The notes under the pieces are model-generated. The model worked only from the letters and a program-made list of their open reading frames with translations. It did not search any database and was not told the origin of the DNA. This document shows, one piece after another, positions 12 through 33,431 of a stretch of DNA of 36,353 nt (position 1 is its first letter; each line of letters starts with the position of its first letter). A program made the translations under genes and the position numbers. The DNA lies in NCBI GenBank assembly GCA_024401305.1, contig JAKSLI010000034.1, forward strand, positions 1-36,353, read 5' to 3'. The stretch is from Bacteroidaceae bacterium. GTDB lineage: Bacteria > Bacteroidota > Bacteroidia > Bacteroidales > Bacteroidaceae.

Positions 12-39
12 AAAAATGAAAAGTGAAAAATGAAAAGTA
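12..39 (+). repeat. Tandem 14-bp repeat at the start of the first gene
   Basis: Two adjacent units, AAAAATGAAAAGTG at 12-25 and AAAAATGAAAAGTA at 26-39, differ only in the last base. Each carries an ATG. The first (16) opens a five-codon frame, MKSEK, whose TGA overlaps the ATG at 30, which is the real gene start. The mini-frame may simply be a by-product of the duplication. Confidence 0.8.
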
Positions 40-6790: not shown

Positions 6791-9508
6791 ATGAGCAAAA
6801 CAAACGCTACAACGAAACATGCATCTGTAAGACGGAGGTCTAGGCAACAGCTGCTGAAGATGCTTGCTGCTGCGGGATTGTTCCTTGGCTCAGGATTTCT
6901 ACAGTCTTGTGAGAAGGACATACTCGAAGGACAACCTGAGTGGTTGGGCAACTCTATTTACGAGCGTCTGCAAGAAGGTATTGAGACGAACGACGGACAA
7001 GTCCGCTCTTTCAATACCACGCTGAGGTTGATTCAAGACCTTGGCTATGAGGAAACCTTGGGACGCACAGGTTCAAAAACTCTTTTCGTCACGCCTGATG
7101 ATGTTTATTCAAAATGGTTCGCGGAGAAGGGCATCTCTTATGAGCAGATGACAATGGCTCAGAAGAAGCAGATGTTCCACAATTCAATGATCAACAATGC
7201 CTACCTCATTGGCTTGATGTCGAATGTAAGTGGAAATCCGCCAGAGGAAGGAAACTGTATGCGTCGCGAAACGGCAAACACGGTCTATGACTCTATCCCA
7301 ACAATCAATGTATCGGATATGCCTGTCAATCCGATGGGCAACTTCTCGAAGGATGTATGGGCTGAGTTCAGGGAAGAAGGCAAGGGAATCCGCGTCTGCA
7401 AGGATGAATCTACTGCCCCAATGATTCACTTCCTCCCAGCTTTCATGGAGAAGAACAACATTACCGCAGAAGACCTTACCATCATCTCCAACGGAGAATC
7501 GAACACGACTACCGACAGTTGGATCAGCGGAAAGAAGGTCATCAGCAAGGAGCAGACTTGCAAGAACGGCTATATCTATGTCATCGACGGTGTGATAGAG
7601 AGTGCCTCAAACATGGCTCAGGCTATTCATGACCAGCCGAACACAAAGATGTGGGCGCAGGCTATCGACCGCTATTCTTGTCCTGTGAGAATAACTGGCA
7701 ACACTCTCAAGAATTTCCAGGATGCCTACAACACCCAGGATAATCTTTACAGCCTTCGCTATTTCACCGGCTATAATAAGAATAATGTAAGGGCACCTTT
7801 CCTGAAGGGTGGTTCGCTCGAGGACGAGCTCAACGCTCGCGGTACTCTTCGCTTTGACCCGGGATGGAACCAGTATCAGGTGCCTACCTCTACACAGACA
7901 ATGGCTCACGACGCTGCGATGATGATTGTGCCTACTGACGAAGCCATCAAGGAATGGCTCGAGAATGGCGCTGGTAAGGACATCAACGAGCGTTTCGGCT
8001 CTTGGGAGAACATCGACTACGAAACTCTTGCTACGCTCATCAACGTGAACATGCTCGAGTCGTTTGTAAGTTCGGTTCCTTCAAAGTTCTCTGCCGTTCT
8101 TGACAACACTTCCCAGCGTGAGCTCGGCATCAAGAAAGAGCATATCGTGAAGTGCATAATGTGCTGTAATGGAGTTGTTTACATCGTCAACCAGGTTTAT
8201 TCTCCTGACTCATACGACTCTGTAATCTATCCTGCTGAACTTCAGACACATGGTACTTATAGCGTAATCAACCATGCTCTCACAGGTTATTACAGTACAT
8301 ACTCTTCAGCAAACGATTTCAGCCCATATCTTTCTTCTATGGAATCTCGTTTTGCGCTTATCATTCCTTATAACACTACAACATCGAAGGCTGCAACGGT
8401 TCAGGCAAAAAGTAAGGTGTTCCGTATCATCGACCCTTGCTCTTACGGTTTGCCAACACAGAGAATCATTGAGTTCTTCTATTCGGAAGACAAGGTTCAG
8501 GGCATTTCGTACGAGTTTGATCCAAATGCTGCTGAGATTATTCCGCAAACAGTCACAAACCTTCCTGAGCGCGTAGTTCAGAACCGTCTGTATGACCTTA
8601 TCGACAACAACATCATCGTTGGTGATATCGTTGATGGTCAGCGCTTCTACAAGTCAAAGACTGGTAGCATCCTCGAGGCTTACAAGAAGAACGGCCAGCA
8701 GTATATCAATGGCGGTTACCAGATAGAGAAGGGTGAAGAGCTGCTCTTCCCAGACTCTTGTATCGTGCACAAGGGTAATGGTGTGACTTACGGCGCTGCT
8801 TGTGCGGATGTTGCCGGCGACAAGATCGTTGCTGTTCCAATGACTGCCACAAAGTCTGTTTACCAGATTCTCCAGGAAGAAAAGTCGGACACTCTCTTCT
8901 ATCATCTTCTCTCTGCCTCAGACCTTCTCTCTACAAAGGAAGGTGCCAACGAACCTGCCGGCAGCGATAACAAGAACATCAATATCTTCGACAGCTACAA
9001 CTATACTGTCTATGTTCCAGAAGATGCAAAGATAAAGGACCTCATCGACAAGGGCTATCTCCCAACATGGGAAGATTACGATGCTCTCGCTGATGCGGAA
9101 GATGCAGGCAATGCCGACGCTAAGAAGATGCGCGAGGTCATCAAGAACCGCATCAACAATTTCTTGCGCTACCATATCCAGGATAACTCTGTGCTTATCC
9201 ATGGCGAGAATGTGTCGCAAAGCTATGAAACCGGTAAGTTGAATCCTAAAAACAACCGATTCTTCACTCTCAATGTTACTGCCAACGCTTCAAGCTTGAC
9301 CGTGGTTGACAACATCGGCAATAAGTGCAATGTGGTCAAGGACGGAAACCTCTACAATAAGCTTGCTCGCGAATACTGGATTTCAAACAAGGGAAAAGCG
9401 AATGCCGAACTCACTTCTTCTTCACATGCCGTGATTCACAAGATTGATGGCGTTCTCCTTTTCGACAAGAGCCAGCTTACAAGTTGGAGAGACGAAGCTA
9501 GAAAGTAA
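6791..9508 (+). CDS. Multi-domain fasciclin (FAS1) lipoprotein
   Basis: This is a 905-residue lipoprotein. A long basic n-region (RRRSRQQLLK), a hydrophobic core and a lipobox ending LQSC place the lipidated cysteine at 40. The next residues, EKD, are acidic, as in Bacteroidetes surface-export signals. FAS1-like units can be seen from their core motif: KTLFVTPDD near 96, MMIVPTDEAI near 376, RFALIIPYNT near 520 and YTVYVPEDAKI near 736. The last unit ends in the usual AVIHKIDGVLLF strand. FAS1 domains generally mediate protein or surface contact and have no known catalysis in this setting. The stop is 3 bp from the next ATG (TAATAAATG), so it is coupled to the SusC gene. It is probably the first gene of the 18-kb operon. 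Confidence 0.85.
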   Translation: MSKTNATTKHASVRRRSRQQLLKMLAAAGLFLGSGFLQSCEKDILEGQPEWLGNSIYERLQEGIETNDGQVRSFNTTLRLIQDLGYEETLGRTGSKTLFVTPDDVYSKWFAEKGISYEQMTMAQKKQMFHNSMINNAYLIGLMSNVSGNPPEEGNCMRRETANTVYDSIPTINVSDMPVNPMGNFSKDVWAEFREEGKGIRVCKDESTAPMIHFLPAFMEKNNITAEDLTIISNGESNTTTDSWISGKKVISKEQTCKNGYIYVIDGVIESASNMAQAIHDQPNTKMWAQAIDRYSCPVRITGNTLKNFQDAYNTQDNLYSLRYFTGYNKNNVRAPFLKGGSLEDELNARGTLRFDPGWNQYQVPTSTQTMAHDAAMMIVPTDEAIKEWLENGAGKDINERFGSWENIDYETLATLINVNMLESFVSSVPSKFSAVLDNTSQRELGIKKEHIVKCIMCCNGVVYIVNQVYSPDSYDSVIYPAELQTHGTYSVINHALTGYYSTYSSANDFSPYLSSMESRFALIIPYNTTTSKAATVQAKSKVFRIIDPCSYGLPTQRIIEFFYSEDKVQGISYEFDPNAAEIIPQTVTNLPERVVQNRLYDLIDNNIIVGDIVDGQRFYKSKTGSILEAYKKNGQQYINGGYQIEKGEELLFPDSCIVHKGNGVTYGAACADVAGDKIVAVPMTATKSVYQILQEEKSDTLFYHLLSASDLLSTKEGANEPAGSDNKNINIFDSYNYTVYVPEDAKIKDLIDKGYLPTWEDYDALADAEDAGNADAKKMREVIKNRINNFLRYHIQDNSVLIHGENVSQSYETGKLNPKNNRFFTLNVTANASSLTVVDNIGNKCNVVKDGNLYNKLAREYWISNKGKANAELTSSSHAVIHKIDGVLLFDKSQLTSWRDEARK

Positions 9509-9511
9509 TAA

Positions 9512-12500
9512 ATGCGAAATTGTATGGAAAACATAATAAATAGATTAGCAAGTCATTACAGGATGCTGCTCATGGCATGCATGCTGTTTGTCTGCTCCTC
9601 TGCAGTGGCGCAAATAACCTCTGTTCACGGTACCGTAAGCGATGACTTCGGACCGCTGATTGGTGCTTCTGTATGTGAGGTGGACGGAAATAACCGTATC
9701 ATCGAGTCTGCTCTTACAGACTTGAACGGTAACTTTACCATGAAGGTGAAGAATCCAAAGGACAAACTTCGTATTTCATATATCGGTTACAAGACCTTGT
9801 TCTTGAAGTTCGACCGTTCTACATACGAAGTGAAAATGGAAGAAGAAGGCCAACTTCAAGAGGTTGTTGTTACTACAACACGAAGAATGAATGGTAACGG
9901 TCTCGCAATTCCTGAACGAGAGGTTTCATACGCTTACCAGGGCTTGAGTACAAAGGACTTTGAAGGTCTCGGTCTCAACACGGTGGATGAAGCTCTCCAG
10001 GGTCGTATTGCCGGTCTCGATATTGTAGGAAACTCAGGTAACCTCGGTTCCGGTTCTACAATGCGTCTTCGTGGTTCTGGTTCACTTTCTTCTCTCACAG
10101 ATGCCAACCCGCTTATCGTTGTCGATGGCAATGTTCGTGAAGTTGACCTCTCAAGCTTTGATGTTGCCTCTGCAAGCGACGAGAAGTTTGCCGAACTCCT
10201 TAACATCAATGCTGACGATATCGCGGAAATCCGCGTGCTCAAGGATGCTTCCGCAACAGCTGTTTACGGTTCGCAAGGTGGTAATGGTGTTATCGAGCTT
10301 ACTACAAAGCGTGGTTCAAAGGGCAAGCCAAAGGTGACTTATACAGCCAAGATGACTGCCACTTACCAGCCTCAGGGCATGAAACTCCTTAATGGTGACG
10401 ACTACACGATGCTCCTTAAGGAAGCTTACTTCAACCCTGAGCAGAACGACGCGGCAAGCAACATCCCAGAAATCAGCTATTTGCCTCTTTCTAGTTTCTC
10501 TGAAGCAAATCAGTATAACGACAACACCGACTGGCGTGATGCCGTAACACAGTGGGGTCTTCGTCAGAATCACTATGTTTCCCTTCGTGGTGGTGGTGAT
10601 AAGGCGCAGTTCTCTATTTCTGCCGGTTACGACCATGAGACAGGTACAGTCATAGCACAGAAGCTTCAGCGTTTCTCTACTCGTGTGAACCTTGACTATA
10701 ACATCAGCCAGCGTATCCGAGTTTCAACAAACTTCTCCCTCATCCGTACCCAGAATCATCAGAACTCTGATAATCTTCTTGCCATCGCACAGAAGAAGAT
10801 GCCTAACATGAGTATCTATGAGGAAGACATCTACGGAAACGATATTCCTGGACATTATTATAATATGATCCAGAGCGGTCCTCATATCGGCAGCGAAATC
10901 TTCAAGGACGACCAGCGCGGATATGTGAACCCTGTGGCAAGTGCATATCTCGCCAAGAATGTTTCCACCAAATTCGACATCAACCCAGAGTTGATCATCA
11001 ACTACGAGCTTCTTGGCATGGACAATGAGCACCATCGTCTTACTTGGAACGGACGCGTCTATACCAATGTGTTCAATAACTACAACGACAAGTTCTACCC
11101 TGCAGAACTCGTTACTACTGCTTGGTCAAGTGGTCATAACACTTCTGACATCTACAGTTCAAAGAGCGTAAGCTTCACCACAAAGCACTCTCTTACATTT
11201 ACTCCATACTTCAAAAACAAGGATCATTCGGCAATGTTCCTCGGTCGTTTTGAGATGACTTCCGGTTCTTCAAGTTGGCAATCTACTGCAGGCAAGGGTC
11301 TTCCTTCTGGCGGTATTGAGAACCCTATTGCTGGTGGTCTTGTTACTGGTCTTGGTTCAAGCTATTCACAGTGGCGTTCAATGTTCTTCACTTTCCTTGC
11401 ACACTACGCATTCAAGGATGGTCGCTATAGTGCAGACGTTTCCGCTCGTGCCGATGGTGTGACAAAGTTTGGTCCGAATAACCGTTGGGGATATTTCCCA
11501 GCAGTCTCTCTCCGTTGGAATGTTATCGACGAGCCTTTCATGAAGCCTTTGCGCTCTTGGATGTCAATGCTTTCAATCCGTCCTTCTTGGGGTGTTGTAG
11601 GTACTGCGCCAAACCAGAACTATCTCTATACTTCAAAATATGGAGCAAGCAGCATGTATCTCGATATGTCTGCAATGTCTCCTCTTAACCTCCGACTCAC
11701 AAAACTCAAGTGGGAGATGGTTAACCAGTATAACCTTGGTTTCGACCTCGGATTCATGAACGACAGACTCAAGCTCGTATTTGAGGTGTTCAATTCTACT
11801 CGTTCAAACATGCTTATGGGTAACTACAGAATCCCTTCAAATGCTGGTTACTCTTCTGTAGCTTACTATAACACAGGTAAGCTTCGTAACACAGGTTGGG
11901 AGTTCCATATCAATACAAACCGTCTTATAAAGATTGGCAAGGATTTCACTACCGATTTCAATGTGAACTTCTCTAACAACAGAAGTGAGCTCCTTGAAAT
12001 GGATCCTACCGTATTGGAGAACATGAACTCTACATTCAACAATGACAACAGACAGGTTCTTTCTCGCGTCCAGTTGAACAACCCTCTCAATGCAATCTAC
12101 GGTTTCCGTTCAAAGGGTGTCTTCATGTATCAGTATGAGACAATCAAGAATATGCCAGCTGAACAGCAGCAAGCATTCATTGATGCCGGAAACACAGCTC
12201 CTGTAGCTCTCAATGCTGACGGCAAGATCATCCGCGACGATAAGGGCGATCCTATCCAGATGATGTTCAACTACAACAATGACGGAACAGGACGTAACTA
12301 TAAGTTCAAGGGTGGTGATGCCATTTACGAGGATATCAACAATGACGGTCAGATCAATGCACTCGACATTGTATATCTCGGCTCTTCACTTCCTAAGCTT
12401 ATGGGTGGTTTCGGCTTGAACATGAACTACAAGGCTTGGCGTTTGGCAGCACAGTTCACTTATCGTATCGGTGTTGACATCATCAACCTTGCTCGTCTTG

Positions 12501-12886
12501 ATGCAGAGGCAATGAGTACCAACAACAACCAAAGCCAGGCTGTGAACTATCGTTGGCGTAAGGAGGGTGATATTACTTCAATCCCTCGTGCCATGTATGG
12601 TGTAAAGACCAACTATAACACTCTTATCAGCGACCGCTTTGTAGAGGATGGTTCTTATCTCCGTATGTCATACATCCAGCTTTCTTACTCTTTGAACAGC
12701 AAGCAGTTGAAGTCGCTCGGACTTGGCAGAATCAGTTTCCACCTTTCTGCTAACAACCCATTGATCTTGACAAAATATACGGGTGTTGACCCTGATATCT
12801 CTGCAGGTCTCTATAATCCTGCACAAGATAATGGCCAGACTCCTCGTGCTCGTTCTTATACATTAAGTCTTGGAATTGAGTTCTAA
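9512..12886 (+). CDS. SusC/RagA-family TonB-dependent outer-membrane transporter (first)
   Basis: This 1124-residue protein has a signal peptide ending SSAVAQ. A carboxypeptidase-regulatory-like domain (about 35-110) is followed by a TonB-box-like stretch LQEVVVTT. The plug domain carries the SusC signature DANPLIVVDG (about 197-206) and KDASATAVYGSQGGNGVIEL (about 241-260). The rest is the 22-strand barrel expected of the family, with DINNDGQINALD near 942 and an aromatic C-terminal end (LGIEF) suited to Bam insertion. Family members take up large ligands such as oligosaccharides or peptides through a SusD lid, using TonB energy. The ligand cannot be read from sequence. Another Met at codon 5 (9524) is an equally possible start. 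Confidence 0.95.
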   Translation: MRNCMENIINRLASHYRMLLMACMLFVCSSAVAQITSVHGTVSDDFGPLIGASVCEVDGNNRIIESALTDLNGNFTMKVKNPKDKLRISYIGYKTLFLKFDRSTYEVKMEEEGQLQEVVVTTTRRMNGNGLAIPEREVSYAYQGLSTKDFEGLGLNTVDEALQGRIAGLDIVGNSGNLGSGSTMRLRGSGSLSSLTDANPLIVVDGNVREVDLSSFDVASASDEKFAELLNINADDIAEIRVLKDASATAVYGSQGGNGVIELTTKRGSKGKPKVTYTAKMTATYQPQGMKLLNGDDYTMLLKEAYFNPEQNDAASNIPEISYLPLSSFSEANQYNDNTDWRDAVTQWGLRQNHYVSLRGGGDKAQFSISAGYDHETGTVIAQKLQRFSTRVNLDYNISQRIRVSTNFSLIRTQNHQNSDNLLAIAQKKMPNMSIYEEDIYGNDIPGHYYNMIQSGPHIGSEIFKDDQRGYVNPVASAYLAKNVSTKFDINPELIINYELLGMDNEHHRLTWNGRVYTNVFNNYNDKFYPAELVTTAWSSGHNTSDIYSSKSVSFTTKHSLTFTPYFKNKDHSAMFLGRFEMTSGSSSWQSTAGKGLPSGGIENPIAGGLVTGLGSSYSQWRSMFFTFLAHYAFKDGRYSADVSARADGVTKFGPNNRWGYFPAVSLRWNVIDEPFMKPLRSWMSMLSIRPSWGVVGTAPNQNYLYTSKYGASSMYLDMSAMSPLNLRLTKLKWEMVNQYNLGFDLGFMNDRLKLVFEVFNSTRSNMLMGNYRIPSNAGYSSVAYYNTGKLRNTGWEFHINTNRLIKIGKDFTTDFNVNFSNNRSELLEMDPTVLENMNSTFNNDNRQVLSRVQLNNPLNAIYGFRSKGVFMYQYETIKNMPAEQQQAFIDAGNTAPVALNADGKIIRDDKGDPIQMMFNYNNDGTGRNYKFKGGDAIYEDINNDGQINALDIVYLGSSLPKLMGGFGLNMNYKAWRLAAQFTYRIGVDIINLARLDAEAMSTNNNQSQAVNYRWRKEGDITSIPRAMYGVKTNYNTLISDRFVEDGSYLRMSYIQLSYSLNSKQLKSLGLGRISFHLSANNPLILTKYTGVDPDISAGLYNPAQDNGQTPRARSYTLSLGIEF

Positions 12887-12911
12887 TAATGGCAAAACAC
12901 AATATACATAT

Positions 12912-14705
12912 ATGAAATACAGTACATTATATAATAAGACCAAGAATTTCGGATTATCGGCAGCCCTGCTTATAGGTGGAATGTCACTCTCTGGCTGTAG
13001 CGATTTTCTTGAAATAAAGCCACAGAATGAGATTATTCTCGAGCAGTTCTGGAATGAGCAGAAGGATGTTGAGAATATCGTCACTGGCTGCTATTCTGCC
13101 ATGCAGAGCTATGGTATGATCAGTCGTATGATGATTTGGGGTGAATTCCGTTCGGAGAATATCGTGAACAACGGTACGATTACGGATGACATCAATCTCG
13201 AGCGTCTTCTGAAGGAAAACATTACTGCCAACAATATCTATACCAACTGGTCGGAATTCTATGGCATAATAAATCGTTGCAATACTGTCATCAAGTATGC
13301 TCCTATCGTAGCAGAAAAGGATCCAGCCTATACTACAAGTCAGTTGAACGCGCATATTGCAGAGGTTACGGCTATCCGTTCGCTTTGCTACTTCTATCTC
13401 ATCCGCACTTTCCGCGATGTTCCTTACTCTGATGAGCCTTTCCTCGACGATGACCAAACGCTGAATCTGCCTGCTACTTCGTTCAACGAGATTCTTCCAA
13501 AGCTCATTACTTCACTCGAGAATGTTGTAAACAATTCCCTGAACAAGTATCCTGAAAAGAATACTACTGCCTATTGGGACTACAATTGCAATAGAGTGAC
13601 AAAGCCTTTGATCTATTCTCTTCTTTGTGAGATGTATCTTTGGCAGAAAGACTATGCAAATTGTGTCAAGTATGCTGACCTTATAATTGAATCAAAGAAG
13701 AAGGACGCTAAGGAAGCAGGCTATCTGTCAAGTGATTTTGAGAACTTCTACGGATATCCTCTCATCTCTTCTCGTTCAAGAGGCTCAAATGAATATGGAA
13801 ATGCGTTCAATCAGATTTTCGTAAAAAACAACAGTATGGAATCCATATTTGAACTCAATTTCCGTAAGGATGACAACGACGGTCGCTTGAATTGCAACGG
13901 TCCTGTATGCTTCTTCTATGGTGGTGGTACAAGAGTTCCTTTCGTCAAGCCTTCTACTTACGTATCTAACGACGAACGTGATAAGCTTTACAATGTATAT
14001 GCTAAGGAGAACGAAGGTTATGATGGCCGTTCATACGAGAACATCCGTTTTGATACCGGTGGCTCTCCTACAGGAATAAACAAATATGCTACACGCGGAA
14101 GTGTAACGCTTACAAGTACAACAACACCATACAAGAATCCTACTGCTTATGGTACACTTTGGCCTACTTACGACAACAACAAGCAGTCGCGTAACAAGTC
14201 AAACTATATCTTGTATCGTCTCACAGACATCATGCTGTTGAAGGCAGAAGCTATCGCACAGATGATTTCTACAGATGGAACTCTCGTTGAAGGAACTCCT
14301 GATTACGACCTCTTGTTGGAGGCATTTGAACTTGTTGATGCCGTTAACAAACGCTCGCTTATCGAGTCAACTCCTTACAAGCATGTATTGGATATCACAA
14401 ATTACGCTTCAAAGCAACAGCTCACAAACTTGATCTTTGATGAACGTAACCGTGAATTGATGTTTGAAGGAAAACGCTATTTTGACCTTGTTCGTCGCTC
14501 TTGGCGTGAAGGCGATACTGAGTATCTCAGCAATAAGGTTACAAACAAGGATCCTCAAACGGCTTCTGTCGTTAAGAGTAAGATGCAAAAGATGGATGCT
14601 ATTTTCTGGCCTTATAATCTTGATGAACTTAAGGTTAACCACAATCTCAAGCAGAATGCAGCCTTCGGTAGTGGTGAAAATGGTAACTTTGAACATTCTA
14701 AATAG
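12912..14705 (+). CDS. SusD/RagB-family surface lipoprotein (first)
   Basis: An ATG at 12912 is preferred over the upstream in-frame ATG at 12870, which would overlap susC. It places a clean signal peptide at the N-terminus, with lipobox SLSGC and lipidated Cys29 followed by SDFLE. The 597-residue product has the helical TPR-like layout of SusD. It also has the conserved C-terminal block RNRELMFEGKRYFDLVRRSW at about 507-526. SusD proteins sit on the outer face as a lid on their SusC partner and bind the ligand. It lies 25 bp after the susC stop and pairs with it. The next gene starts 9 bp downstream. Confidence 0.95.
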   Translation: MKYSTLYNKTKNFGLSAALLIGGMSLSGCSDFLEIKPQNEIILEQFWNEQKDVENIVTGCYSAMQSYGMISRMMIWGEFRSENIVNNGTITDDINLERLLKENITANNIYTNWSEFYGIINRCNTVIKYAPIVAEKDPAYTTSQLNAHIAEVTAIRSLCYFYLIRTFRDVPYSDEPFLDDDQTLNLPATSFNEILPKLITSLENVVNNSLNKYPEKNTTAYWDYNCNRVTKPLIYSLLCEMYLWQKDYANCVKYADLIIESKKKDAKEAGYLSSDFENFYGYPLISSRSRGSNEYGNAFNQIFVKNNSMESIFELNFRKDDNDGRLNCNGPVCFFYGGGTRVPFVKPSTYVSNDERDKLYNVYAKENEGYDGRSYENIRFDTGGSPTGINKYATRGSVTLTSTTTPYKNPTAYGTLWPTYDNNKQSRNKSNYILYRLTDIMLLKAEAIAQMISTDGTLVEGTPDYDLLLEAFELVDAVNKRSLIESTPYKHVLDITNYASKQQLTNLIFDERNRELMFEGKRYFDLVRRSWREGDTEYLSNKVTNKDPQTASVVKSKMQKMDAIFWPYNLDELKVNHNLKQNAAFGSGENGNFEHSK

Positions 14706-14714
14706 TTTTGCAAA

Positions 14715-16784: not shown

Positions 16785-16823
16785 TAAGGTTATAACCTAC
16801 CAACCTCAAAACCTTAAAAAATT

Positions 16824-18605
16824 ATGAAAATCAAAAATACAATATTAGCCGTTTCTCTATTCATGAGTGCTGCAACTGCATGCACCGATGAATGGAACGA
16901 GCATTATTCTGCTGCTCAACTTGGCGATGGTGTGACATTGTGGACTACAATCAACAATGACGAGTCACTGTCAAACTTCAAGCAGGTGCTTCAGGCAGCT
17001 AACTATGATGCTTCGCTCAATGGAAGTCAGATCTTTACTGTCTTTGCTCCAACGAACGATGAACTCACAGCAGAGATGCGCGATAATCTCATACAGCAAT
17101 ATAACGCGGAAAAGACTGCTGGCGTAAAGGAAAAGGAAAACTCTGTCGTTAAGGAATTCATCCAGAACCATATCGCACTTTACAATTATTCCGTTTCTGA
17201 TGCCATGAAGGATACTACCATCCGAATGATGAATGGTAAACGAGTGGCATTCACAAAGACGCAGTTCGACGGTCGTGATTATATCTCAAAGAACACCCCT
17301 AACAAGAATGGCGTGCTCTTCAAGATAAATGATGTTGCTGAATATGTCCCTTCTGTTTACGAGGCACTTGCAAAGGCTGAGAAAGCAGAAAACGTTTGGC
17401 AGTATCTTAAACTTTTCCATGAAGACAAGTTCGATTCAAAGAACTCTGTTCCTGGCAATATCATTGATGGTAAGACACACTATCTTGACTCTGTAACGAA
17501 TAAAAGAAACAAGTTCTTCTCTGAGATGCTGAAAAAAGCGGAAGTTCTCAATGAAGACTCTACTTATTGGATGGTTGTTCCTACAAGTGAAGATTGGGAA
17601 AATCTTGTTACCGACTATTCAAAGTACTATCAGTATGATCAGAAGGTAGCGGAACGAGATTCTTTCCAGTATCATTTCCCTCGTTTTGCCGTGCTTGAAG
17701 GTACTGCTTTCAGCAAGTCTGCCAATCCAAAACTCTTCAACTCAGGAACAGCATCTGCTTCGGACTCTCTAATGTCCACAAACGCTCTCTCTTATTTTGA
17801 TCGTCAAAGCAAATTCGGTTCTTATAATTTCAAGTACTATCAGTATGACGATCCTTTCGGAACTGATGGTGTTTTGGCAGATTGTGAAGCTTTCTCTTGC
17901 AGTAATGGTAAGCTCTTTATTGCAAACAAGTGGAATATCTCTCCTCGCCAGACATTCCTTCGTGATATCGTGATGGAGGCTGAGAGCGCATCTACAATTG
18001 ACTCTCTCAATGTGAAGTCTGATAACAACCGTGCTGGTGACACTAACCAGGGAAAGGTTGTTAAGATTACTTCTGACAATCCTTATTACAATAAGATTTC
18101 AGGCAACTCTTATCTTGAGATTACTCCAAGTGGTGTTACCAACTTCAGCAAGGCGCTTTTCGATGTCCGTAATGTTCTTTCAAATGTACCTTACGACGTT
18201 TATGTTGTAATAGCACCAGCTGAAGCAGGCGATGTTGACGCTACGGATATCCAGAAGCTTCCTGTAACATTCCGTTGTGCTCTCCAGTGCCATAATGAAG
18301 AAGGTGAAGCTTACTATATTAATATTGCTGACGGCAAACTCCAATATCCTGTGGCAGATAAGTCGGGAACAATAAACACAAACTATACAAAGAGTGCTGT
18401 CTATGGACAGAACAGACAGAATGATCCAACAAAAGTCGATTCTGTATTCATTGGCACAGTGACATTCCCTACTTGCTCAAGCGAAGTTGCTGAACCTCAG
18501 GTTAAGTTGCTCTTCCAAAGCTATGTTACAAGTTCTGCGTTTGAAAAAACTGCAAACAGAACATTGCGTCTCGACTGTATTGTGTTCAGACCTCATGAAG
18601 ATTAA
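16824..18605 (+). CDS. FAS1-domain lipoprotein with C-terminal beta-sandwich (second)
   Basis: This 593-residue lipoprotein has lipobox ATAC with Cys20 followed by TDEW. The first FAS1 domain is clear: SLSNFKQVLQAANYD leads to FTVFAPTNDEL at 71-81. A degenerate second domain may span about 175-330. The C-terminal third begins about residue 375 with LRDIVMEAESAST and closes with TLRLDCIVFRP. This parallels the terminal beta-sandwich of the previous gene, although overall similarity looks low. Order suggests that it opens the second FAS1-SusC-SusD module. It is spaced 39 bp from the gene before and 38 bp from the SusC gene after, consistent with one transcript. Confidence 0.8.
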   Translation: MKIKNTILAVSLFMSAATACTDEWNEHYSAAQLGDGVTLWTTINNDESLSNFKQVLQAANYDASLNGSQIFTVFAPTNDELTAEMRDNLIQQYNAEKTAGVKEKENSVVKEFIQNHIALYNYSVSDAMKDTTIRMMNGKRVAFTKTQFDGRDYISKNTPNKNGVLFKINDVAEYVPSVYEALAKAEKAENVWQYLKLFHEDKFDSKNSVPGNIIDGKTHYLDSVTNKRNKFFSEMLKKAEVLNEDSTYWMVVPTSEDWENLVTDYSKYYQYDQKVAERDSFQYHFPRFAVLEGTAFSKSANPKLFNSGTASASDSLMSTNALSYFDRQSKFGSYNFKYYQYDDPFGTDGVLADCEAFSCSNGKLFIANKWNISPRQTFLRDIVMEAESASTIDSLNVKSDNNRAGDTNQGKVVKITSDNPYYNKISGNSYLEITPSGVTNFSKALFDVRNVLSNVPYDVYVVIAPAEAGDVDATDIQKLPVTFRCALQCHNEEGEAYYINIADGKLQYPVADKSGTINTNYTKSAVYGQNRQNDPTKVDSVFIGTVTFPTCSSEVAEPQVKLLFQSYVTSSAFEKTANRTLRLDCIVFRPHED

Positions 18606-18643
18606 TATTGACAGTCTATCCCTAAACAAATAAGTATATAGCT

Positions 18644-21600
18644 ATGAAACGATATATTATATTCGGATTATCACTGCTTTTGGCATGTCCTACTTTTGTG
18701 CATGCGCAGGACGACTCTGGCAATGCTAAGGTAAAGACTGTTAAGCGTGATGTTAACAAAAAGTACGAAACTCGAACCGTCAAGGGAAAAGTTGTAAATG
18801 CAGCTACAGGAGCTCCTATTTCTGGTGCCATTGTTGGTGCACACGGTCTTGACGGCTATAGTGGTCTTACTAACGATAATGGTGAATACACAGTAAAAGT
18901 ACCAACATTCTCTTCTGCTATCTTTGTTTCATGTCCTGATTACAATTCTGTAATGTTGGGATTGTCTAATGGTGAGGAGCAACAGACAGCAAAGTTGTTT
19001 GCTTCAAATTTCACTGCAGATTACGACAAGCAGATAAATGTTACTTCAGACAAGCATGCTAACGATTTTGATTATAGTAGTGCAATAAACATCAAGGACG
19101 AAGTTCAAGGCAAACTTGGTGCCTACGCATACACAAAGTCTAATAACGGCACGCCAGGTGTTGGCTCTACAATATTTATTCAAGGCTTGAATTCCCTTAA
19201 TGTCAATGCTCAGCCACTCGTTGTAATAGATGGAGTCATTCAAGAGCAGCAGTATGGCAGGGAACTCCTGCATGATGGTTTCGTCAATGACATTCTCTCT
19301 AATATCAATCCTGCAGATATAGAAGACGTCACTGTTATGCGAAACGGAACAGCTTTGTATGGAGCACGTGGTGCAAATGGCGTTATCGTTATCAAGACAC
19401 ATCGTGCCAAGTCTATGGCAACACGCATTACAGCAAGCGTTTCTGGTGGTGTTGTCATGAAACCTAAGTTCTACGACATGATGGATGCTGAACAATATCG
19501 TGGTTATGCATCTGAAATGCTCAAGACAACTGGCACCAAGATAACAAGTTTCAAGTTCTTGAACCCTGATCCTTCTTACTATTATTACAAGCAGTATCAT
19601 AATAGCACAGATTGGAAAGAAGGCGTTTATCGCAATGCGTCAACTCAGAATTATGGCGTAAAGGTTGAAGGTGGAGATGATGTCGCTCAGTATAATCTCT
19701 CCGTTGGTTACACAGCAGCCAATAGTACGCTTAAATGTAACGATATGAGTCGTTTGAACATCCGCTTCAACACCGACATCAATCTCGGCAAGAAGTTTGA
19801 TGTTCGTTTCGACGCATCGTTCTCTGACCTTACTCGTGATATCCGTGATGATGCTGCACCAAAAGGCTATGATGAAGGCACACCTACAGCTCCTTCTTTC
19901 TTGGCATACGCAAAGGCTCCTTTCATGAGCCCATTCTCTTATGGCAACGGCATGATTTCTGACTCGTTCCTTGATATCAATGACGAATCATATCTTGACG
20001 AGGTTCTTTCCGGTTACAGAAACTATAACTATCGTCTTGCCAATCCTTACGCATTGAACGAATATGCTGAGGCAGAAAACAAGAACCGTTTTGAGAATTC
20101 AATTCTTAATCTTGCTGTAACACCAAAGTGGAAGTTCAATAATAACTTGTCTCTCTATTCACACTTTAGCTATACTCTTGTAAATACTAACAACAAGTAT
20201 TACATTCCTGTAAACGGTGTGCCAAGCTATTATGTTTCTTCTGTTTCAGGAACACGCGAGAATCAGGTTGAATCATTGGCATCAAAGCAGAACTCAATCT
20301 ATAGTGATACTCGTCTTACATGGGAAAATCGCTATGATGCTCATGATCTGAGTGTCTTCGGTGGTTTCCGTATGAGCATTGAGTCATACACTCGCAGTCA
20401 GCAGATTGGTTATAACACGGGTAGTGATAAAACTCCATTCATGAGTGCTGCACTTTCAAACCCACAGGCTTTTGGTGTTGACGAGTCATGGCGTACTCTC
20501 GATGCTTATCTTCAGGCAAACTACAACTATGCAGGTCGCTACTTCGCTCAGCTTAACTTGACATCAACAGCATCTTCTCGCTTTGGTGTTGAGGCTGACG
20601 GTTTGAGCCTTCTTGGTGTAAAATGGGGCTTGTTCCCATCAATTCAGGGCACTTGGATTGTTTCAAACGAATCTTGGTTCCCTAAGAGCAGCGCTATCAA
20701 TAATCTCTCTCTTACTGCTGGATATGACATTAGCGGTAATGACAATATTGATGTTTATGCTGCACGCACCTTCTTCGGTTCGTCATTGTATCTTAACTCT
20801 ATTTCAAGTCTTACTGTTCAAGGTGTAGGTAATAAGAGTATCAAGTGGGAAACTACAAGCCGCTTCAACGCTGGTATTCAGGGCAAGTTCCTCAATAACC
20901 GTTTGAGTGCTGGTTTCAATTTCTTCAAGTCAAAGACTTCTGACATCCTTACTCTGCAGTCACTTAGTTTCCTTACAGGTATAGAGAACAACTGGTCAAA
21001 TAATGGCGAGCTGGAGAATACAGGCTTTGATGCTACTCTTCTCGGCAAACTCGTTGCTACAAGAAACTGGTCATGGGAACTTGGAGGTAGCATCGGCCAC
21101 TATAAGAATAAGGTAACTTCCCTTGGCCTTGGCGCTGGAAAGGATTCTTTTACTACTCAGGTTGGAACAGCAACTATCCTTACAAAAGAAGGCGAAGCTG
21201 CTAACCTTTTCTATGGTTATCGCACAAAAGGCGTTTTTGCTACTACCGAACAAGCTCAGCAAGCAGGTCTTTACATAATTGACCAGAATGGTGTTGACAA
21301 GCATTACTTCGCAGCCGGTGATGTAATCTTCGATGATGTAAACGGAGATGGTGAAATCAATGACAAAGACCGTGTTGTTATCGGCGACCCTAATCCGGAT
21401 TTCTACGGAAACATCTTCACTTCTCTGTCATGGAAGAATCTCACACTTGCCGTGAATTTCAATTATTCTTATGGCAACGAAGTGTTCAACTATACGCGTT
21501 CACAGCTTGAAGGTGGTTGTCGTTTCCTCAATCAAACCACAGCACTTACACAGCGTTGGCAGATGGAAGGACAGGAAACATCGGTTCCTAAGCTTTCTTT

Positions 21601-21883
21601 CCAGGACGAGATGGGCAACGCTCGTTTCTCTGATCGTTGGATAGAAGATGCTTCTTTCCTGAAACTTAAGTCTATTACGCTTAGCTACAATCTCCCTATC
21701 AAGTCTTCTTTCCTTCAGGGACTTGAGTTCTGGGTTCAAGGAAATAACCTTCTCACCGTTTCAAAGTATCTCGGCACTGATCCGGAGTTCTCTTCATCAG
21801 CATCTGTAATCGGTCAGGGTATTGACTATGGTTCACTCGGTTCAAGCCGCAGCATAGTCGGAGGCATTAAGATTAAGCTCTAA
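18644..21883 (+). CDS. SusC/RagA-family TonB-dependent outer-membrane transporter (second)
   Basis: This 1079-residue protein has signal peptide MKRYIIFGLSLLLACPTFVHA. A regulatory-like domain (about 44-115, VKGKVVNAATGAPISGA) precedes the plug, which shows AQPLVVIDG at about 189-197 and RNGTALYGARGANGVIVIKT near 233-252. The barrel contains the typical DVNGDGEINDKD near 899. It differs from the first SusC in two ways. No EVVVTGYG-like TonB box is obvious between the regulatory and plug domains, and the protein ends in IKIKL rather than an aromatic residue. The ligand is unknown. It is paired with the SusD gene 56 bp downstream. Confidence 0.95.
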   Translation: MKRYIIFGLSLLLACPTFVHAQDDSGNAKVKTVKRDVNKKYETRTVKGKVVNAATGAPISGAIVGAHGLDGYSGLTNDNGEYTVKVPTFSSAIFVSCPDYNSVMLGLSNGEEQQTAKLFASNFTADYDKQINVTSDKHANDFDYSSAINIKDEVQGKLGAYAYTKSNNGTPGVGSTIFIQGLNSLNVNAQPLVVIDGVIQEQQYGRELLHDGFVNDILSNINPADIEDVTVMRNGTALYGARGANGVIVIKTHRAKSMATRITASVSGGVVMKPKFYDMMDAEQYRGYASEMLKTTGTKITSFKFLNPDPSYYYYKQYHNSTDWKEGVYRNASTQNYGVKVEGGDDVAQYNLSVGYTAANSTLKCNDMSRLNIRFNTDINLGKKFDVRFDASFSDLTRDIRDDAAPKGYDEGTPTAPSFLAYAKAPFMSPFSYGNGMISDSFLDINDESYLDEVLSGYRNYNYRLANPYALNEYAEAENKNRFENSILNLAVTPKWKFNNNLSLYSHFSYTLVNTNNKYYIPVNGVPSYYVSSVSGTRENQVESLASKQNSIYSDTRLTWENRYDAHDLSVFGGFRMSIESYTRSQQIGYNTGSDKTPFMSAALSNPQAFGVDESWRTLDAYLQANYNYAGRYFAQLNLTSTASSRFGVEADGLSLLGVKWGLFPSIQGTWIVSNESWFPKSSAINNLSLTAGYDISGNDNIDVYAARTFFGSSLYLNSISSLTVQGVGNKSIKWETTSRFNAGIQGKFLNNRLSAGFNFFKSKTSDILTLQSLSFLTGIENNWSNNGELENTGFDATLLGKLVATRNWSWELGGSIGHYKNKVTSLGLGAGKDSFTTQVGTATILTKEGEAANLFYGYRTKGVFATTEQAQQAGLYIIDQNGVDKHYFAAGDVIFDDVNGDGEINDKDRVVIGDPNPDFYGNIFTSLSWKNLTLAVNFNYSYGNEVFNYTRSQLEGGCRFLNQTTALTQRWQMEGQETSVPKLSFQDEMGNARFSDRWIEDASFLKLKSITLSYNLPIKSSFLQGLEFWVQGNNLLTVSKYLGTDPEFSSSASVIGQGIDYGSLGSSRSIVGGIKIKL

Positions 21884-21939
21884 TAGTTTCTTGATATCCA
21901 ATAAAACCGAATACACGAAAACTTGAAAATTATAAACTT

Positions 21940-23865
21940 ATGAAACTCATTAATAATATAATAAAGCGAGTTCGTCCTCTAGCATTTGTTGCTGTGGCAT
22001 CCATGTTTACTGCGTCTTGTGAAGACTTCCTGGATGTTAGCTCAAACACAGTCATTGATGCCAATGACAATCACCTTTCTTCAGCTCGCGACTCTATTTA
22101 TTCAGTCATCGGTGTGCTCAACAAGATGCAGGCTATTGCAGACCGCACGGTTCTTCTTGGCGAAGCTCGCGCTGACTTGCTGGATATCACATCATCTACT
22201 TCAAAGGATCTTCGTGACCTTGCACTCTTTAATGTAGGTGATGACAACAAATACAATTCTCCACGCGACTATTATGCCATCATCAACAACTGCAACTATT
22301 TCATTGCTAATGTTGATACTGCGATGACAAACAACCGTAATGAGAATGTTTATCTTAACGAATATGCCGTTGTCAAGGCTGTTCGCGCTTGGACTTATCT
22401 CCAGCTCGTTACAACCTACGGCAAAGTTCCTTTCGTAACAGAACCTATTCTTTCAAAAGATGAAGGTGAGGCAAACTATCCAATGTATGGCATAAAGGAA
22501 ATCTGCGACTTTTTCATAGACAAGGATGGTTTACAACTTCTTGCTGACAATCCTAACATCACTTATCCTTGGTATGGCGACATTAAGGGAACTCCGTCTC
22601 GTCTGTTCTATATTCAGATGAATCTTATACTTGGTGACCTTTATCTTTGGCGTGCATCATTGACAAATTCAAAGTCAGATTACCTGGAATCAGCTAAACG
22701 TTACTATGATTATCTCTCAAAGCGAAACGGTATAACTACAAGTTCCGCTTATCCAACAACCAGTGGAAGAGTGTATTGGACAAGTGAGTCTTGGGATATG
22801 GCTAACGATAGCTGGTCATCATTTATTGTTGACGAGACTAACGGTGCAAATTCGGAAATTATCACTATTATTCCAATGGACTCAATTAAGTCAGAAGGTT
22901 ATTATAGTGAACTTCGTAGCATTTTCTGCTCTAACTATAATGATGAGCAGAATGTAGGTCTTGTTCCATCACAATCACTTCAGGAACTCTCTGCTGCTCA
23001 GGAATATTGCTATTTCGATGAAAATGCAGTGAAATTCACTTATGCACCAAAGGGATTGAATAATTATCTTGACGGTGACCTGCGTCTTGCTGCTAGTTGG
23101 TACACAAATGATAACGCGACAAACGATAAGGGTGAGCGTTTCACAACGCAAACCATCTCAAAGTTTGCATATCCAAAGAACGGCAACATCTCACTTTATC
23201 GTCGCGGTCAAGTATATCTCCGTTTGGCAGAAGCAATAAATCGTGCTGGCTTCCCACGCTTTGCTTACCAGATACTCTCTTCTGGCGTAAACGATCAAGT
23301 AATCAATTATTGCGTTTCCATTTTTGCTGACGAAGAAGATTACGAAACACTCGATTACTTCTCATTCCCACAAGGTAGATATAATGTTGCAATGTGGAAA
23401 TCGCCAATCCCGGGTGTTCAGCAGATCATGTACGGTAATTTTGATGCAACAAGATATTCTATCGGTATTCATAGTCGTGGTAGTGGCGTTTCTCCTTTCA
23501 ATGAATTCTATCAAATGCCTTATGGCGAAGCGATCATAGATACAATTGAAATTCGTAACGATGAAGGCGAACTCATCGACTACAACTATAACATCCATAA
23601 AGACAGTGAAACACCAGGACTTGTAGAAAAGCAGATGGAAGCTGTTGAGGAAATGATTGTCAACGAGCAAGCCCTTGAAACAGCATTCGAAGGCTATCGT
23701 TTCTATGACCTCATGCGAGTTGCATATCGTCGTAATGACCCTTCATACCTTGCCAATAAAGTATATTCACGCAGAGGAAATAAGGGAAGTGCAGACATAA
23801 ACACAAACCTTCTTGATCCAAACAATTGGTTCTTGAAGTGGAATGGTCAGATAGGTATCTACTAA
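21940..23865 (+). CDS. SusD/RagB-family surface lipoprotein (second)
   Basis: This 641-residue lipoprotein has lipobox TASC with Cys27 followed by EDFLD, a very common SusD beginning. The N-terminal region (ARDSIYSVIGVLNKMQ, then NNCNYFIANVDTAM) and the C-terminal block EQALETAFEGYRFYDLMR (about 577-594) are diagnostic. It is somewhat longer than the first SusD. It should form the lid of the second SusC and determine which ligand is captured. Two hairpins lie between its stop and the last gene of the run, which may lower expression downstream. Confidence 0.95.
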   Translation: MKLINNIIKRVRPLAFVAVASMFTASCEDFLDVSSNTVIDANDNHLSSARDSIYSVIGVLNKMQAIADRTVLLGEARADLLDITSSTSKDLRDLALFNVGDDNKYNSPRDYYAIINNCNYFIANVDTAMTNNRNENVYLNEYAVVKAVRAWTYLQLVTTYGKVPFVTEPILSKDEGEANYPMYGIKEICDFFIDKDGLQLLADNPNITYPWYGDIKGTPSRLFYIQMNLILGDLYLWRASLTNSKSDYLESAKRYYDYLSKRNGITTSSAYPTTSGRVYWTSESWDMANDSWSSFIVDETNGANSEIITIIPMDSIKSEGYYSELRSIFCSNYNDEQNVGLVPSQSLQELSAAQEYCYFDENAVKFTYAPKGLNNYLDGDLRLAASWYTNDNATNDKGERFTTQTISKFAYPKNGNISLYRRGQVYLRLAEAINRAGFPRFAYQILSSGVNDQVINYCVSIFADEEDYETLDYFSFPQGRYNVAMWKSPIPGVQQIMYGNFDATRYSIGIHSRGSGVSPFNEFYQMPYGEAIIDTIEIRNDEGELIDYNYNIHKDSETPGLVEKQMEAVEEMIVNEQALETAFEGYRFYDLMRVAYRRNDPSYLANKVYSRRGNKGSADINTNLLDPNNWFLKWNGQIGIY

Positions 23866-23866
23866 T

Positions 23867-23951
23867 AGCAGTTCCTACTGCTCAGATTTCCACATATTTC
23901 AGAATGATATATTAGTGTCCGGGAGAATGCACACGCTATCTTCTCGGACAC
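23867..23951 (+). other. Two hairpins between susD and the last operon gene
   Basis: The first is perfect, AGCAGT-TCCT-ACTGCT (23867-23882). The second pairs GTGTCCGGGAGAA (23915-23927) with TTCTCGGACAC (23941-23951), leaving a two-base bulge and a 13-base loop. Neither is followed by a T-run, so they look more like mRNA processing or stability elements than terminators. Attenuation is possible but unproven. Confidence 0.6.
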
Positions 23952-23980
23952 ACAATTAATAATCCCCAAAACACTAAGCT

Positions 23981-24604
23981 ATGAAAAAACAGATTCTTTT
24001 GGCATTGGCAATATTGTTCTGCGCACAGATAGTCAGTGCTTCCAACATCTTGGAAAACAGCGGAAATTCTATCACAGAAAGTGAACTTTCCAATGTGTCG
24101 CTCGACCAAGTGCAAAAAGTGCCTCTTGTTGGTACGTGGAAAGACAATGGAGATCTTACCTCAATGTTCATGAGTGCTGATGATGGCGAAGATAATGTTG
24201 ACATGAAGGATGCAAAGATATATTTGACCTTCACTGCAAACAAGATGACTATGAAGATAGATACTTCCATGGATGCAGATGGCATAGCAATGTCAATGAA
24301 GATGACTGCTGATTTCAGTTACACTCGTTCAGGCAAGGTCTTGAATGTGAAATTCATTTCAGCAAAACTCACATCTATTGATATCAACCTCAATCCTGAG
24401 ATGAAATCAGCATTTGCTGCCCAAGGAATTAACAAGTCACAGCTGAACGAAATGTTCATGCAGCAGTTAGGTCCTGAGTTCGAGAAAGAAATGGCAGATT
24501 CTGGCTTAAAACAATGGGATAAACTGACTATCACAAAGCTCACCAACAAGCAGTTGGTACTTAACGATGACACAACATCCATTACATTAACTCGCGTAAA
24601 ATAG
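23981..24604 (+). CDS. Secreted lipocalin-like protein of unknown function
   Basis: This 207-residue protein has signal peptide MKKQILLALAILFCAQIVSA and no lipobox, so it is probably periplasmic. PLVGTWK near 50 is typical of the first strand of lipocalin-like barrels. The rest alternates short beta-type stretches (KIYLTFTANKMTMKI, TADFSYTRSGKVLNVKF), a helical part at about 140-175 and a closing TSITLTRVK. These features suggest a small beta-barrel that could bind a hydrophobic ligand, which is inference. It is the last gene before the strong terminator, 115 bp after susD, and might be separately tuned through the hairpins upstream. Confidence 0.7.
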   Translation: MKKQILLALAILFCAQIVSASNILENSGNSITESELSNVSLDQVQKVPLVGTWKDNGDLTSMFMSADDGEDNVDMKDAKIYLTFTANKMTMKIDTSMDADGIAMSMKMTADFSYTRSGKVLNVKFISAKLTSIDINLNPEMKSAFAAQGINKSQLNEMFMQQLGPEFEKEMADSGLKQWDKLTITKLTNKQLVLNDDTTSITLTRVK

Positions 24605-28064: not shown

Positions 28065-28073
28065 TCTTTGGTG

Positions 28074-28104
28074 CAAATGTAGCATATTTTTCCCTTATTT
28101 GAAA
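28074..28104 (-). promoter_or_regulatory. Likely promoter of the acyltransferase gene
   Basis: Read on the minus strand, TACATTTG (28081 to 28074) matches the -7 TAnnTTTG element. At the expected 19-bp spacing lies TTTC (28104 to 28101), one base off TTTG. Transcription would begin only about 3-5 nt before the ATG at 28064, which predicts a nearly leaderless mRNA. Confidence 0.6.
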
Positions 28105-28175
28105 CGAATGAAACAATAAATAAAAGCGAAAAGGCGTTTTTGGGGCGATTATTCTTTATTTAGCAAAAAATATGC

Positions 28176-28183
28176 TAATTTTG
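28176..28183 (+). promoter_or_regulatory. Candidate -7 element of the rlmL gene
   Basis: TAATTTTG at 28176-28183 fits TAnnTTTG and lies 19 bp before the ATG at 28203. No good TTTG is present at the expected -33 position, so the assignment is moderate. It is divergent from the acyltransferase promoter. Confidence 0.5.
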
Positions 28184-28202
28184 CGCGCAAATATCTCTTT
28201 TT

Positions 28203-29693: not shown

Positions 29694-29723
29694 TTGTAAA
29701 ATTGTAAATCCGTAAATTGTAAA
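29693..29723 (+). repeat. Short tandem repeat before the DPP IV gene
   Basis: ATTGTAAA occurs at 29693-29700 and 29701-29708, followed by TCCGTAAA and TTGTAAA. These four units of 7-8 bp fill the gap between rlmL and the next ATG and begin within the rlmL stop codon. Confidence 0.75.
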
Positions 29724-29731
29724 TTCACTTG

Positions 29732-31960: not shown

Positions 31961-31962
31961 AA

Positions 31963-31993
31963 TTGCACAAAAGGGTCAGACCCCTTTGTGCAA
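31963..31993. terminator. Palindrome after the DPP IV gene, probable terminator
   Basis: TTGCACAAAAGGGT (31963-31976) pairs with ACCCCTTTGTGCAA (31980-31993), with one mismatch and a CAG loop. A short A-run but no T-run follows, so terminator strength on the plus strand is uncertain. It resembles an interspersed palindrome. It would form part of a spurious N-terminal extension of purD if an ATG near it were used. Confidence 0.6.
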
Positions 31994-32035
31994 AAATGCA
32001 AGCAAAATCTAATTATTAACAATAAAAGTCCTAAA

Positions 32036-33307: not shown

Positions 33308-33308
33308 T

Positions 33309-33422: not shown

Positions 33423-33431
33423 AACCCTAAT

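What the first reader, a model, noticed from the sequence alone, without database searches (positions are those of the whole stretch)
6791..24604. Two SusC/SusD pairs interleaved with three FAS1 lipoproteins in one co-directional run
The order FAS1-SusC-SusD-FAS1 / FAS1-SusC-SusD-lipocalin-like looks like two related modules in tandem. Gaps are 3 to 115 bp. No CAZyme, ECF sigma factor or hybrid two-component regulator lies in the run, unlike a typical polysaccharide-utilization locus. FAS1 domains are known for adhesion and protein contact, so the FAS1 lipoproteins may be accessory ligand-binding subunits of the SusCD complexes. The ligand could be a protein, a host matrix glycan or another cell's surface.
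Basis: partly seen in the sequence, partly recalled or inferred. Interest (0 to 1): 0.75.

Follow-up and report, generated by a model that had tools for sequence, protein, structure and literature searches.

The report
Seven-gene glycan-uptake cassette with FAS1 proteins
This run of genes is a conserved seven-gene outer-membrane uptake unit, most likely used by gut bacteria to catch and import pieces of plant pectin; its surface-binding proteins are built from FAS1 domains, and one of its two transporters seems to lack the usual connection to the cell's power source.

Summary
The genes are as described, but they are one seven-gene unit, not two tandem modules: FAS1a-SusC1-SusD1-FAS1b-FAS1c-SusC2-SusD2. 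The genome holds a second copy in the same order with FAS1 proteins only 28-32% identical, and I found the strict order in 63 loci from several families of the order and from other orders of the class. The lipocalin-like gene is not part of it; a CBM-like secreted protein upstream (3004-6369) is often linked. Some relatives lie beside hybrid two-component regulators and rhamnogalacturonan lyases; in L211 the next gene is a lyase with the Pfam domain BT_4170-like_C. Gene order thus fits the rhamnogalacturonan-I PUL of B. thetaiotaomicron (BT4163-BT4170), where a review names BT4167 as the RG-I-binding protein. The FAS1 lipoproteins are best read as surface glycan-binding proteins; a protein ligand is not supported. 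New here: FAS1b joins FAS1 domains to a CBM-like domain, and SusC2 lacks the canonical TonB box that SusC1 has. An asymmetric SusC1D1/SusC2D2 machine is a testable proposal. RG-I for this copy is inferred: the window holds no rhamnogalacturonan lyase.

The parts
3004..6369 (+). large secreted protein with CBM-like modules, possibly T9SS-exported; linked upstream gene
   Evidence: Homologue directly upstream and co-directional in 35 of 69 loci with more than 2.5 kb upstream. AF2 pLDDT 85.7, pTM 0.55; modules resemble CBM61 2xon (E 4.7e-6, TMt 0.64) and CBM16. T9SS-like tail read by eye only; no Pfam or NCBIfam match.
6791..9508 (+). FAS1a lipoprotein, 905 aa, probably several FAS1 domains
   Evidence: Pfam Fasciclin 35 bits; family profile matches TGFBIp/periostin; followed by SusC1 in 79 of 80 genome-contig loci
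9512..12886 (+). SusC1, with canonical TonB box (QLQEVVVT)
   Evidence: TIGR04056 669 bits; TonB-box matrix score 26.0
12912..14705 (+). SusD1 (ORF opens at TTG 12870; ATG 12912 is the likelier start, my reading)
   Evidence: PF07980 75 bits
14715..16784 (+). FAS1b lipoprotein: FAS1 part (probably two domains) plus C-terminal beta-sandwich, DUF5108 in some relatives
   Evidence: Pfam; AF2 pLDDT 88.9, pTM 0.85; Foldseek to TGFBIp/periostin, xanthan-binding module 7ehg, CBM35 2w47; PF17133 in FAS1b of L040 and L214, not in the window copy
16824..18605 (+). FAS1c lipoprotein, positional counterpart of BT4167 (inferred)
   Evidence: Pfam Fasciclin 40.3 bits; conserved position
18644..21883 (+). 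SusC2, canonical TonB box missing between NTE and plug
   Evidence: TIGR04056 559 bits; TonB-box matrix score 1.2, in the range of shuffled linkers
21940..23865 (+). SusD2
   Evidence: PF07980 and PF14322 above cut-off
23981..24604 (+). small secreted lipocalin/DUF5640-like protein; not part of the conserved unit
   Evidence: Sub-threshold Pfam matches; best label in no other locus
24706..27111 (-). GH2 enzyme, beta-galactosidase-like, convergent neighbour, possible partner
   Evidence: PF02837, PF02836, PF18565; best NCBIfam matches GalB and GalA, both below cut-off

Best explanation
Genes 6791-23865 form the outer-membrane core of a polysaccharide utilization system for pectin-type glycans, most likely rhamnogalacturonan-I with galactan side chains. 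Shown by sequence: seven genes kept together as one unit; five lipoproteins with acidic residues just after the cysteine; two SusC barrels, only SusC1 with a canonical TonB box. Inferred: the FAS1 lipoproteins stand on or around the SusC barrels as surface glycan-binding proteins; FAS1b presents a CBM-like domain; the secreted protein 3004-6369 gathers galactan-rich polymer; oligosaccharides enter mainly through TonB-powered SusC1/SusD1, with SusC2/SusD2 as the partner half of an asymmetric complex. The confidence below is for the glycan-uptake module with FAS1 binding proteins; for RG-I as the substrate of this very copy I would say about 0.5.
For: Strict order in 63 loci: 30 of 41 (one, L056, with a short SusC2 ORF), 22 of 40, 11 of 18 (the other 7 being flanks). 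70 of 80 genome-contig loci agree as far as the contig reaches. Distances of the seven genes correlate at r 0.89-0.97 over 29 cassettes. Rhamnogalacturonan lyases directly beside SusD2 in L211 (PL9 with BT_4170-like_C), L213, L226, L062, L063 (PL11) and L187 (PL4). HTCS in L073, L074, L084. In the window's own clade L107 has an arabinofuranosidase-type protein directly before FAS1a. B. theta RG-I PUL: two SusCDs BT4164/65 and BT4168/69, SGBP BT4167, lyase BT4170 (PMC8002723 passages); a DUF5108 protein within BT4164-69 (PMC10434189 passage); RG-I as primary substrate of BT4145-83 (PMC3243724 passages). CBM-like folds.
Against: No rhamnogalacturonan lyase in the window. Five 3' neighbours scanned in loci like the window's (L058, L059, L061, L065; L066, which is not in the tree) were not pectin enzymes. 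Other cassettes sit near GH98, GH43/GH97, GH51 or GH5, so substrates may vary. PL11 excess near cassettes is modest: 7 of 61 within 10 kb (2.4 expected, P 0.011), 8 within 15 kb (3.0, P 0.012), 8 within 20 kb (3.6, P 0.033), under a crude uniform model. No direct comparison with B. theta proteins was possible, and one paper's table lists the substrate of PUL77 (BT4163-65) as unknown (PMC13088901 passage). Fold matches are to single modules, with low query-normalised TM.
Confidence: 0.75

Rival explanations
1. Same seven-gene module and same FAS1 binding role, but the window copy takes a different plant polysaccharide (arabinan, arabinogalactan, xylan or another hemicellulose), since paralogous cassettes have diversified.
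For: Up to five cassette loci in one genome (G022); neighbours with GH98, GH43/GH97, GH51, GH5. The window and C49 cassettes fall in different clades.
Against: RG lyases beside cassettes in distant lineages make a pectic substrate the simplest ancestral state; CBM61-like modules and the GH2 neighbour fit pectic galactan.
Confidence: 0.4
2. FAS1 lipoproteins are adhesins for a protein, host-matrix or cell-surface ligand, and the SusCDs import peptides or glycoprotein fragments.
For: FAS1 parts match periostin and TGFBIp in sequence and fold, which bind matrix proteins (recalled). Some SusCDs carry peptides: a passage of PMC7782687 mentions the Bt2263/64-peptide complex.
Against: HTCS, PL, GH and CE neighbours across the family; CBM-like fold in FAS1b; the review's RG-I-binding protein BT4167; many of the 80 closest named relatives are MAGs titled from ruminant or horse samples.
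Confidence: 0.07
3. SusC1D1 and SusC2D2 are two independent TonB-dependent importers, as the review states for BT4164/65 and BT4168/69.
For: Both SusCs are full-length members of TIGR04056. Part of the SusC2s, the window's included, have an extra N-terminal stretch before the NTE that could hold a relocated box (40 sequences printed). Review statement.
Against: No canonical TonB box in SusC2: 0 of 65 reach the SusC1 5th percentile and the median equals shuffled linkers; 10 of 10 full-length non-cassette SusCs of this genome show one. Several SusC2s start directly at the NTE.
Confidence: 0.35

Closest known systems
Rhamnogalacturonan-I PUL of Bacteroides thetaiotaomicron (BT4145-BT4183), OM core BT4163-BT4170
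   Same: Two SusCD pairs (BT4164/65 and BT4168/69) with two genes between them, one (BT4167) called the RG-I SGBP, and lyase BT4170 after them; a DUF5108 protein somewhere in BT4164-69; L211 repeats the whole order with a BT_4170-like PL9 next to SusD2. BT4163 is listed with decreases like those of BT4164/65.
   Different: The window has no lyase, HTCS or GH28/GH105 set beside it; it has the CBM-like upstream protein and a GH2. Neither the review nor the iron paper holds the word fasciclin.
Levan and dextran utilisomes of B. theta (SusCD + SGBP + surface GH)
   Same: SusCD in a complex with extra surface lipoproteins of the same locus (PMC7618045 passages)
   Different: Dimers of one SusCD with an Ig-type SGBP and a surface GH; here two different SusCDs, three FAS1 proteins and no GH in the operon
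Tandem SusCD xylan PUL of Segatella copri (NQ_13805-13865)
   Different: GH10 in the PUL; the paper does not hold the word fasciclin
TGFBIp / periostin multi-FAS1 proteins
   Same: FAS1 fold, repeated domains
   Different: Animal secreted proteins with no SusCD partner; no lipoprotein anchor or CBM-like domain (recalled)

Membership tests
SusC/RagA | TIGR04056 above cut-off | tested here: met
   669 and 559 bits against 368
SusC/RagA | TonB box between NTE and plug | tested here: not met
   Met by SusC1, not met by SusC2; a relocated box in SusC2 is not excluded
SusD/RagB | SusD Pfam domains and lipobox | tested here: met
   lipobox Cys in 138 of 143 SusD1 and 66 of 66 SusD2 sequences
FAS1 (Fasciclin) | PF02469 over cut-off and FAS1 fold | tested here: met
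   Three window proteins over cut-off; fold tested for FAS1b only
Polysaccharide utilization locus | SusCD with linked CAZymes and regulator | tested here: inconclusive
   Window: only a convergent GH2. Relatives: PL, GH, CE and HTCS neighbours
B. theta RG-I PUL core | same gene order | tested here: met
   Order of the window and 62 other loci against the order stated in print
B. theta RG-I PUL core | adjacent rhamnogalacturonan lyase | tested here: not met
   Not met in the window; met in 6 of 39 three-prime neighbours scanned, not a random sample
B. theta RG-I PUL core | sequence homology to BT4163-BT4169 themselves | not testable with these tools
   No named B. theta genome could be fetched
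Surface glycan-binding protein | measured binding of polysaccharide | not testable with these tools
   Only fold resemblance to CBMs and the review's word on BT4167
T9SS cargo (3004-6369) | match to a T9SS sorting-domain model | tested here: not met
   No match; tail similar by eye only

The most novel reading that the evidence does not exclude
The cassette builds an obligate asymmetric outer-membrane machine: a TonB-powered SusC1D1 paired with a SusC2D2 that has lost its TonB box and serves as a non-transporting docking platform, the two bridged by FAS1 lipoproteins that hold long branched pectin over the single active gate. If so, the second SusCD of the B. theta RG-I PUL is not an importer as stated in print.
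Probability: 0.35. Interest if true: 0.78.

Novelty: new variant of a known kind. Interest (0 to 1): 0.52.

Why it matters
If true, it gives FAS1 and DUF5108 proteins of this phylum a role as glycan-capturing surface subunits, ties a widespread seven-gene block to pectin uptake in gut Prevotella, and predicts that one of two paired SusCs works without the standard TonB link. That questions the view that every SusCD is an independent powered importer, and it can be tested in B. thetaiotaomicron.

Tried and rejected
Two tandem modules: rejected, because the seven genes recur as one block.

Lipocalin-like gene as a member: rejected; best label in no other of the 41 loci.

DUF5108 (PF17133) as a general marker: insensitive. 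It misses the window FAS1b and hit 4 of 392 phylum, 7 of 295 order and 17 of 249 family genomes.

Generic Fasciclin search over the phylum: 68 of 148 genomes, and the listed matches (a capped list) are largely short or standalone FAS1 proteins. L194-L196, L201 and L205-L207 are FAS1 loci without a cassette; L038 and L039 have a FAS1b-like gene without Sus genes.

PL11 as sole partner: only a modest excess near cassettes. That test used 96 rows typed with second fragments of a gene left out by hand, and some cassette ends were estimated; the Bacteroides-like genomes were not in it.

Promoter: no TAnnTTTG in the 421 bp before FAS1a; one at 2852, before 3004. Not used as evidence.

TonB box: a loose pattern gave 112 of 136 SusC1 and 12 of 54 SusC2. 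A scored 11-mer matrix gave 0 of 65 SusC2 at or above the SusC1 5th percentile; an 8-mer gave 1 of 65. Both matrices were trained on SusC1 (124 of 149 sequences), which favours SusC1; the 149 include two non-cassette SusCs (L193, L224). In the control, one non-cassette SusC with a visible box (L235, EVMV) scores only 7.6, close to the 7.2 of the window SusC2, whose best match lies in a plug motif; so the control rests on where the motif sits as well as on the score.

Lipobox finding took wrong cysteines in some rows; redone. No control set of other lipoproteins was run for the acidic tails.

Fold search of 3004-6369: the top-ranked hits are insecticidal Cry proteins at TM 0.13-0.14, rmsd over 25 A and about 10% identity; I take these as chance chains of similar beta-sandwiches, not kinship.
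Full report
OBSERVATION. The eight ORFs are where the finding puts them, with the stated gaps. Pfam gives Fasciclin in three proteins, plug and NTE-type domains in two and SusD domains in two; the last gene has only sub-threshold matches. NCBIfam confirms both SusCs. The window is the complete contig C44 of a 3.2 Mb, 86% complete genome.

THE UNIT IS SEVEN GENES. A six-frame search of the genome with the Fasciclin family finds four hits, in two places only: this window and contig C49. C49 repeats FAS1a-SusC1-SusD1-FAS1b-FAS1c-SusC2-SusD2 exactly, with FAS1 proteins only 28, 32 and 31% identical to those of the window. A FAS1b profile hits 17 of 60 relatives, 15 of them among the 36 genomes of the same genus, this one included. 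Gene calling found the complete strict order in 30 of 41 loci (L056 among them has a short SusC2 ORF; the others were cut by contig or locus ends, were flanks, were unrelated or had a gene that did not call), in 22 of 40 loci of wider samples that included deliberate FAS1 loci without a cassette, and in 11 of 18 loci of the same family, the other seven being flanks. SusC1 follows FAS1a in 79 of 80 (L102 ends first). 70 of 80 keep the expected order as far as the contig goes; of the ten that do not, four lack a called SusD1, four lack a called FAS1c and two have an extra FAS1b. L171, L172 and L178 lack FAS1b. Distances of the seven genes correlate at r 0.89-0.97 across 29 cassettes: they are inherited together, even where one genome (G022) holds five cassette loci.

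SPREAD. With a FAS1a profile, matches of 100 bits or more occur in 25 of 247 genomes of the order and 6 of 247 of the phylum, this genome included in both; only three candidates per genome were scored. Five of the latter are in other orders of the class, and all five show the strict order (L187-L191). A SusC1 tree places the window with Prevotella-type MAGs (70% identity to L091) and the C49 copy in a different clade.

PROTEINS. FAS1b, modelled from 72 sequences (pLDDT 88.9, pTM 0.85), matches TGFBIp and periostin by Foldseek, and also the xanthan-binding module 7ehg (TMt 0.64-0.68) and more weakly CBM35 2w47, solved with an anhydrogalacturonate, and a CBM6. The output gives no aligned range; I assign the latter to the C-terminal beta-sandwich (about 430-680), which in some relatives is DUF5108. 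Query-normalised TM values are low (0.11-0.27), as expected for single modules of a long protein. The five lipoproteins carry a lipobox and acidic residues just after the cysteine: at least one D/E at +2 to +6 in 137 of 147 FAS1a, 121 of 138 SusD1, 123 of 144 FAS1b, 133 of 136 FAS1c and 63 of 66 SusD2, like the surface-export signal of this phylum (recalled; no control set). The upstream protein 3004-6369 has a homologue directly upstream of FAS1a in 35 of 69 loci. Its modules resemble CBM61, solved with beta-1,4-galactotriose (2xon, E 4.7e-6, TMt 0.64); by sequence the family profile hits a galactanase at 3.2e-5, but the window protein alone reaches only 0.19 with 2xom.

TWO UNEQUAL SusCs. 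SusC1 has the TonB box between NTE and plug; SusC2 has none there. A matrix gives SusC1 a median of 28.4 (149 sequences) and SusC2 -0.7 (65), equal to shuffled linkers; 0 of 65 SusC2 reach the SusC1 5th percentile, 1 of 65 with a shorter matrix. Of this genome's 16 SusCs over the family cut-off, four are the cassette ones, 10 are full-length others and two are short (L240, L244). All 10 show a box such as EVVV, QVVV or EVMV, though one scores only 7.6; the short ones do not; both SusC2s (4.9 and 7.2) score only at a plug motif. Deleting or mutating the TonB box left the levan SusC strain with the defect of a SusD deletion (PMC7782687 passages). Caution: part of the SusC2s, the window's included, have an extra N-terminal stretch before the NTE that might hold a moved box (40 printed).

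SUBSTRATE. I scanned the first 3' neighbour of 39 cassettes, the window's included; they were taken as convenient, not at random. Six are rhamnogalacturonan lyases (L062, L063, L187, L211, L213, L226; the one of L062 is convergent). Others are HTCS regulators (L037, L054), GDSL/SASA esterases (L051, L189), GH2 (L188), GH51-type (L208), GH5 (L041), proteins with carbohydrate-binding-type domains, unknowns, and unrelated genes (for example L058, L059, L061, L065, L066, L068). L215 and L216 have a pectate-lyase-family gene just before FAS1a. In the window's clade, L107 has an arabinofuranosidase-type protein there. Bacteroides-like cassettes lie in regions with PL11, GH28, GH88, GH106, GDSL esterase and HTCS. 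PL11 genes lie within 15 kb of 8 of 61 cassettes in 33 genomes against about 3.0 expected under a crude model. Other cassettes sit near GH98 or GH43/GH97, so paralogues may have other substrates.

WHAT IS KNOWN. Passages of a review (PMC8002723) describe the B. theta RG-I PUL BT4145-BT4183: two SusCDs BT4164/65 and BT4168/69, SGBP BT4167 and surface lyase BT4170. A table in PMC10434189 (passage) lists a DUF5108 protein within BT4164-69. PMC3243724 (passages) gives RG-I as primary substrate of BT4145-83. PMC13088901 (passage) lists BT4163-65 with similar decreases, substrate unknown. L211 has the full cassette followed by a PL9 with the Pfam domain BT_4170-like_C. I therefore read the window as a homologue of BT4163-BT4169; this is inference, since the B. 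theta proteins could not be fetched. In the held library, searches for fasciclin with SusC and SusD, FAS1 domain with SusCD, and fasciclin with polysaccharide utilization, Bacteroid- and lipoprotein found two papers, both holding fasciclin only in the reference list. Two searches on SusC and TonB box were judged from listings, apart from passages of two of the papers. The main research paper on that PUL is not held.

VERDICT. A real and widely conserved seven-gene uptake unit, best read as a pectin-type PUL core with FAS1 glycan-binding lipoproteins. The kind is known; the FAS1/CBM build of its binding proteins, the breadth of the block and the unequal SusCs are the points I did not find in print in those searches.

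Noticed in passing
30-752 (+): Looks by eye like an anti-sigma-factor-type membrane protein; no Pfam match. A partner ECF sigma gene, if any, would lie off the contig end.
   Followed up: partly
L001:17895-19175 (-): The second cassette in this genome is followed by two similar genes that look by eye like deoxynucleoside kinases, not CAZymes.
   Followed up: no
L121:6064-9729: The homologue of 3004-6369 here ends in a Dockerin_1 domain.
   Followed up: no
L149, L154: Cassettes with a duplicated FAS1b, giving four FAS1 proteins.
   Followed up: no
L171: Two FAS1a genes flank a hybrid two-component regulator, and FAS1b is missing.
   Followed up: no
flanks of L174, L185, L200, L208 and others: Several cassettes are flanked by large secreted proteins with a T9SS sorting tail: Por_Secre_tail over the Pfam cut-off in L185, L200, L208, below it in L174; others by eye only.
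   Followed up: partly
G620, G556, G624: Five FAS1a matches reported with one TAA inside the matched stretch.
   Followed up: no
27159-35609: Genes of other functions: lipid A acyltransferase, RlmL-type methyltransferase, DPP-IV-type peptidase, GARS (PurD), dihydroorotate-dehydrogenase-B-type iron-sulfur protein.
   Followed up: no
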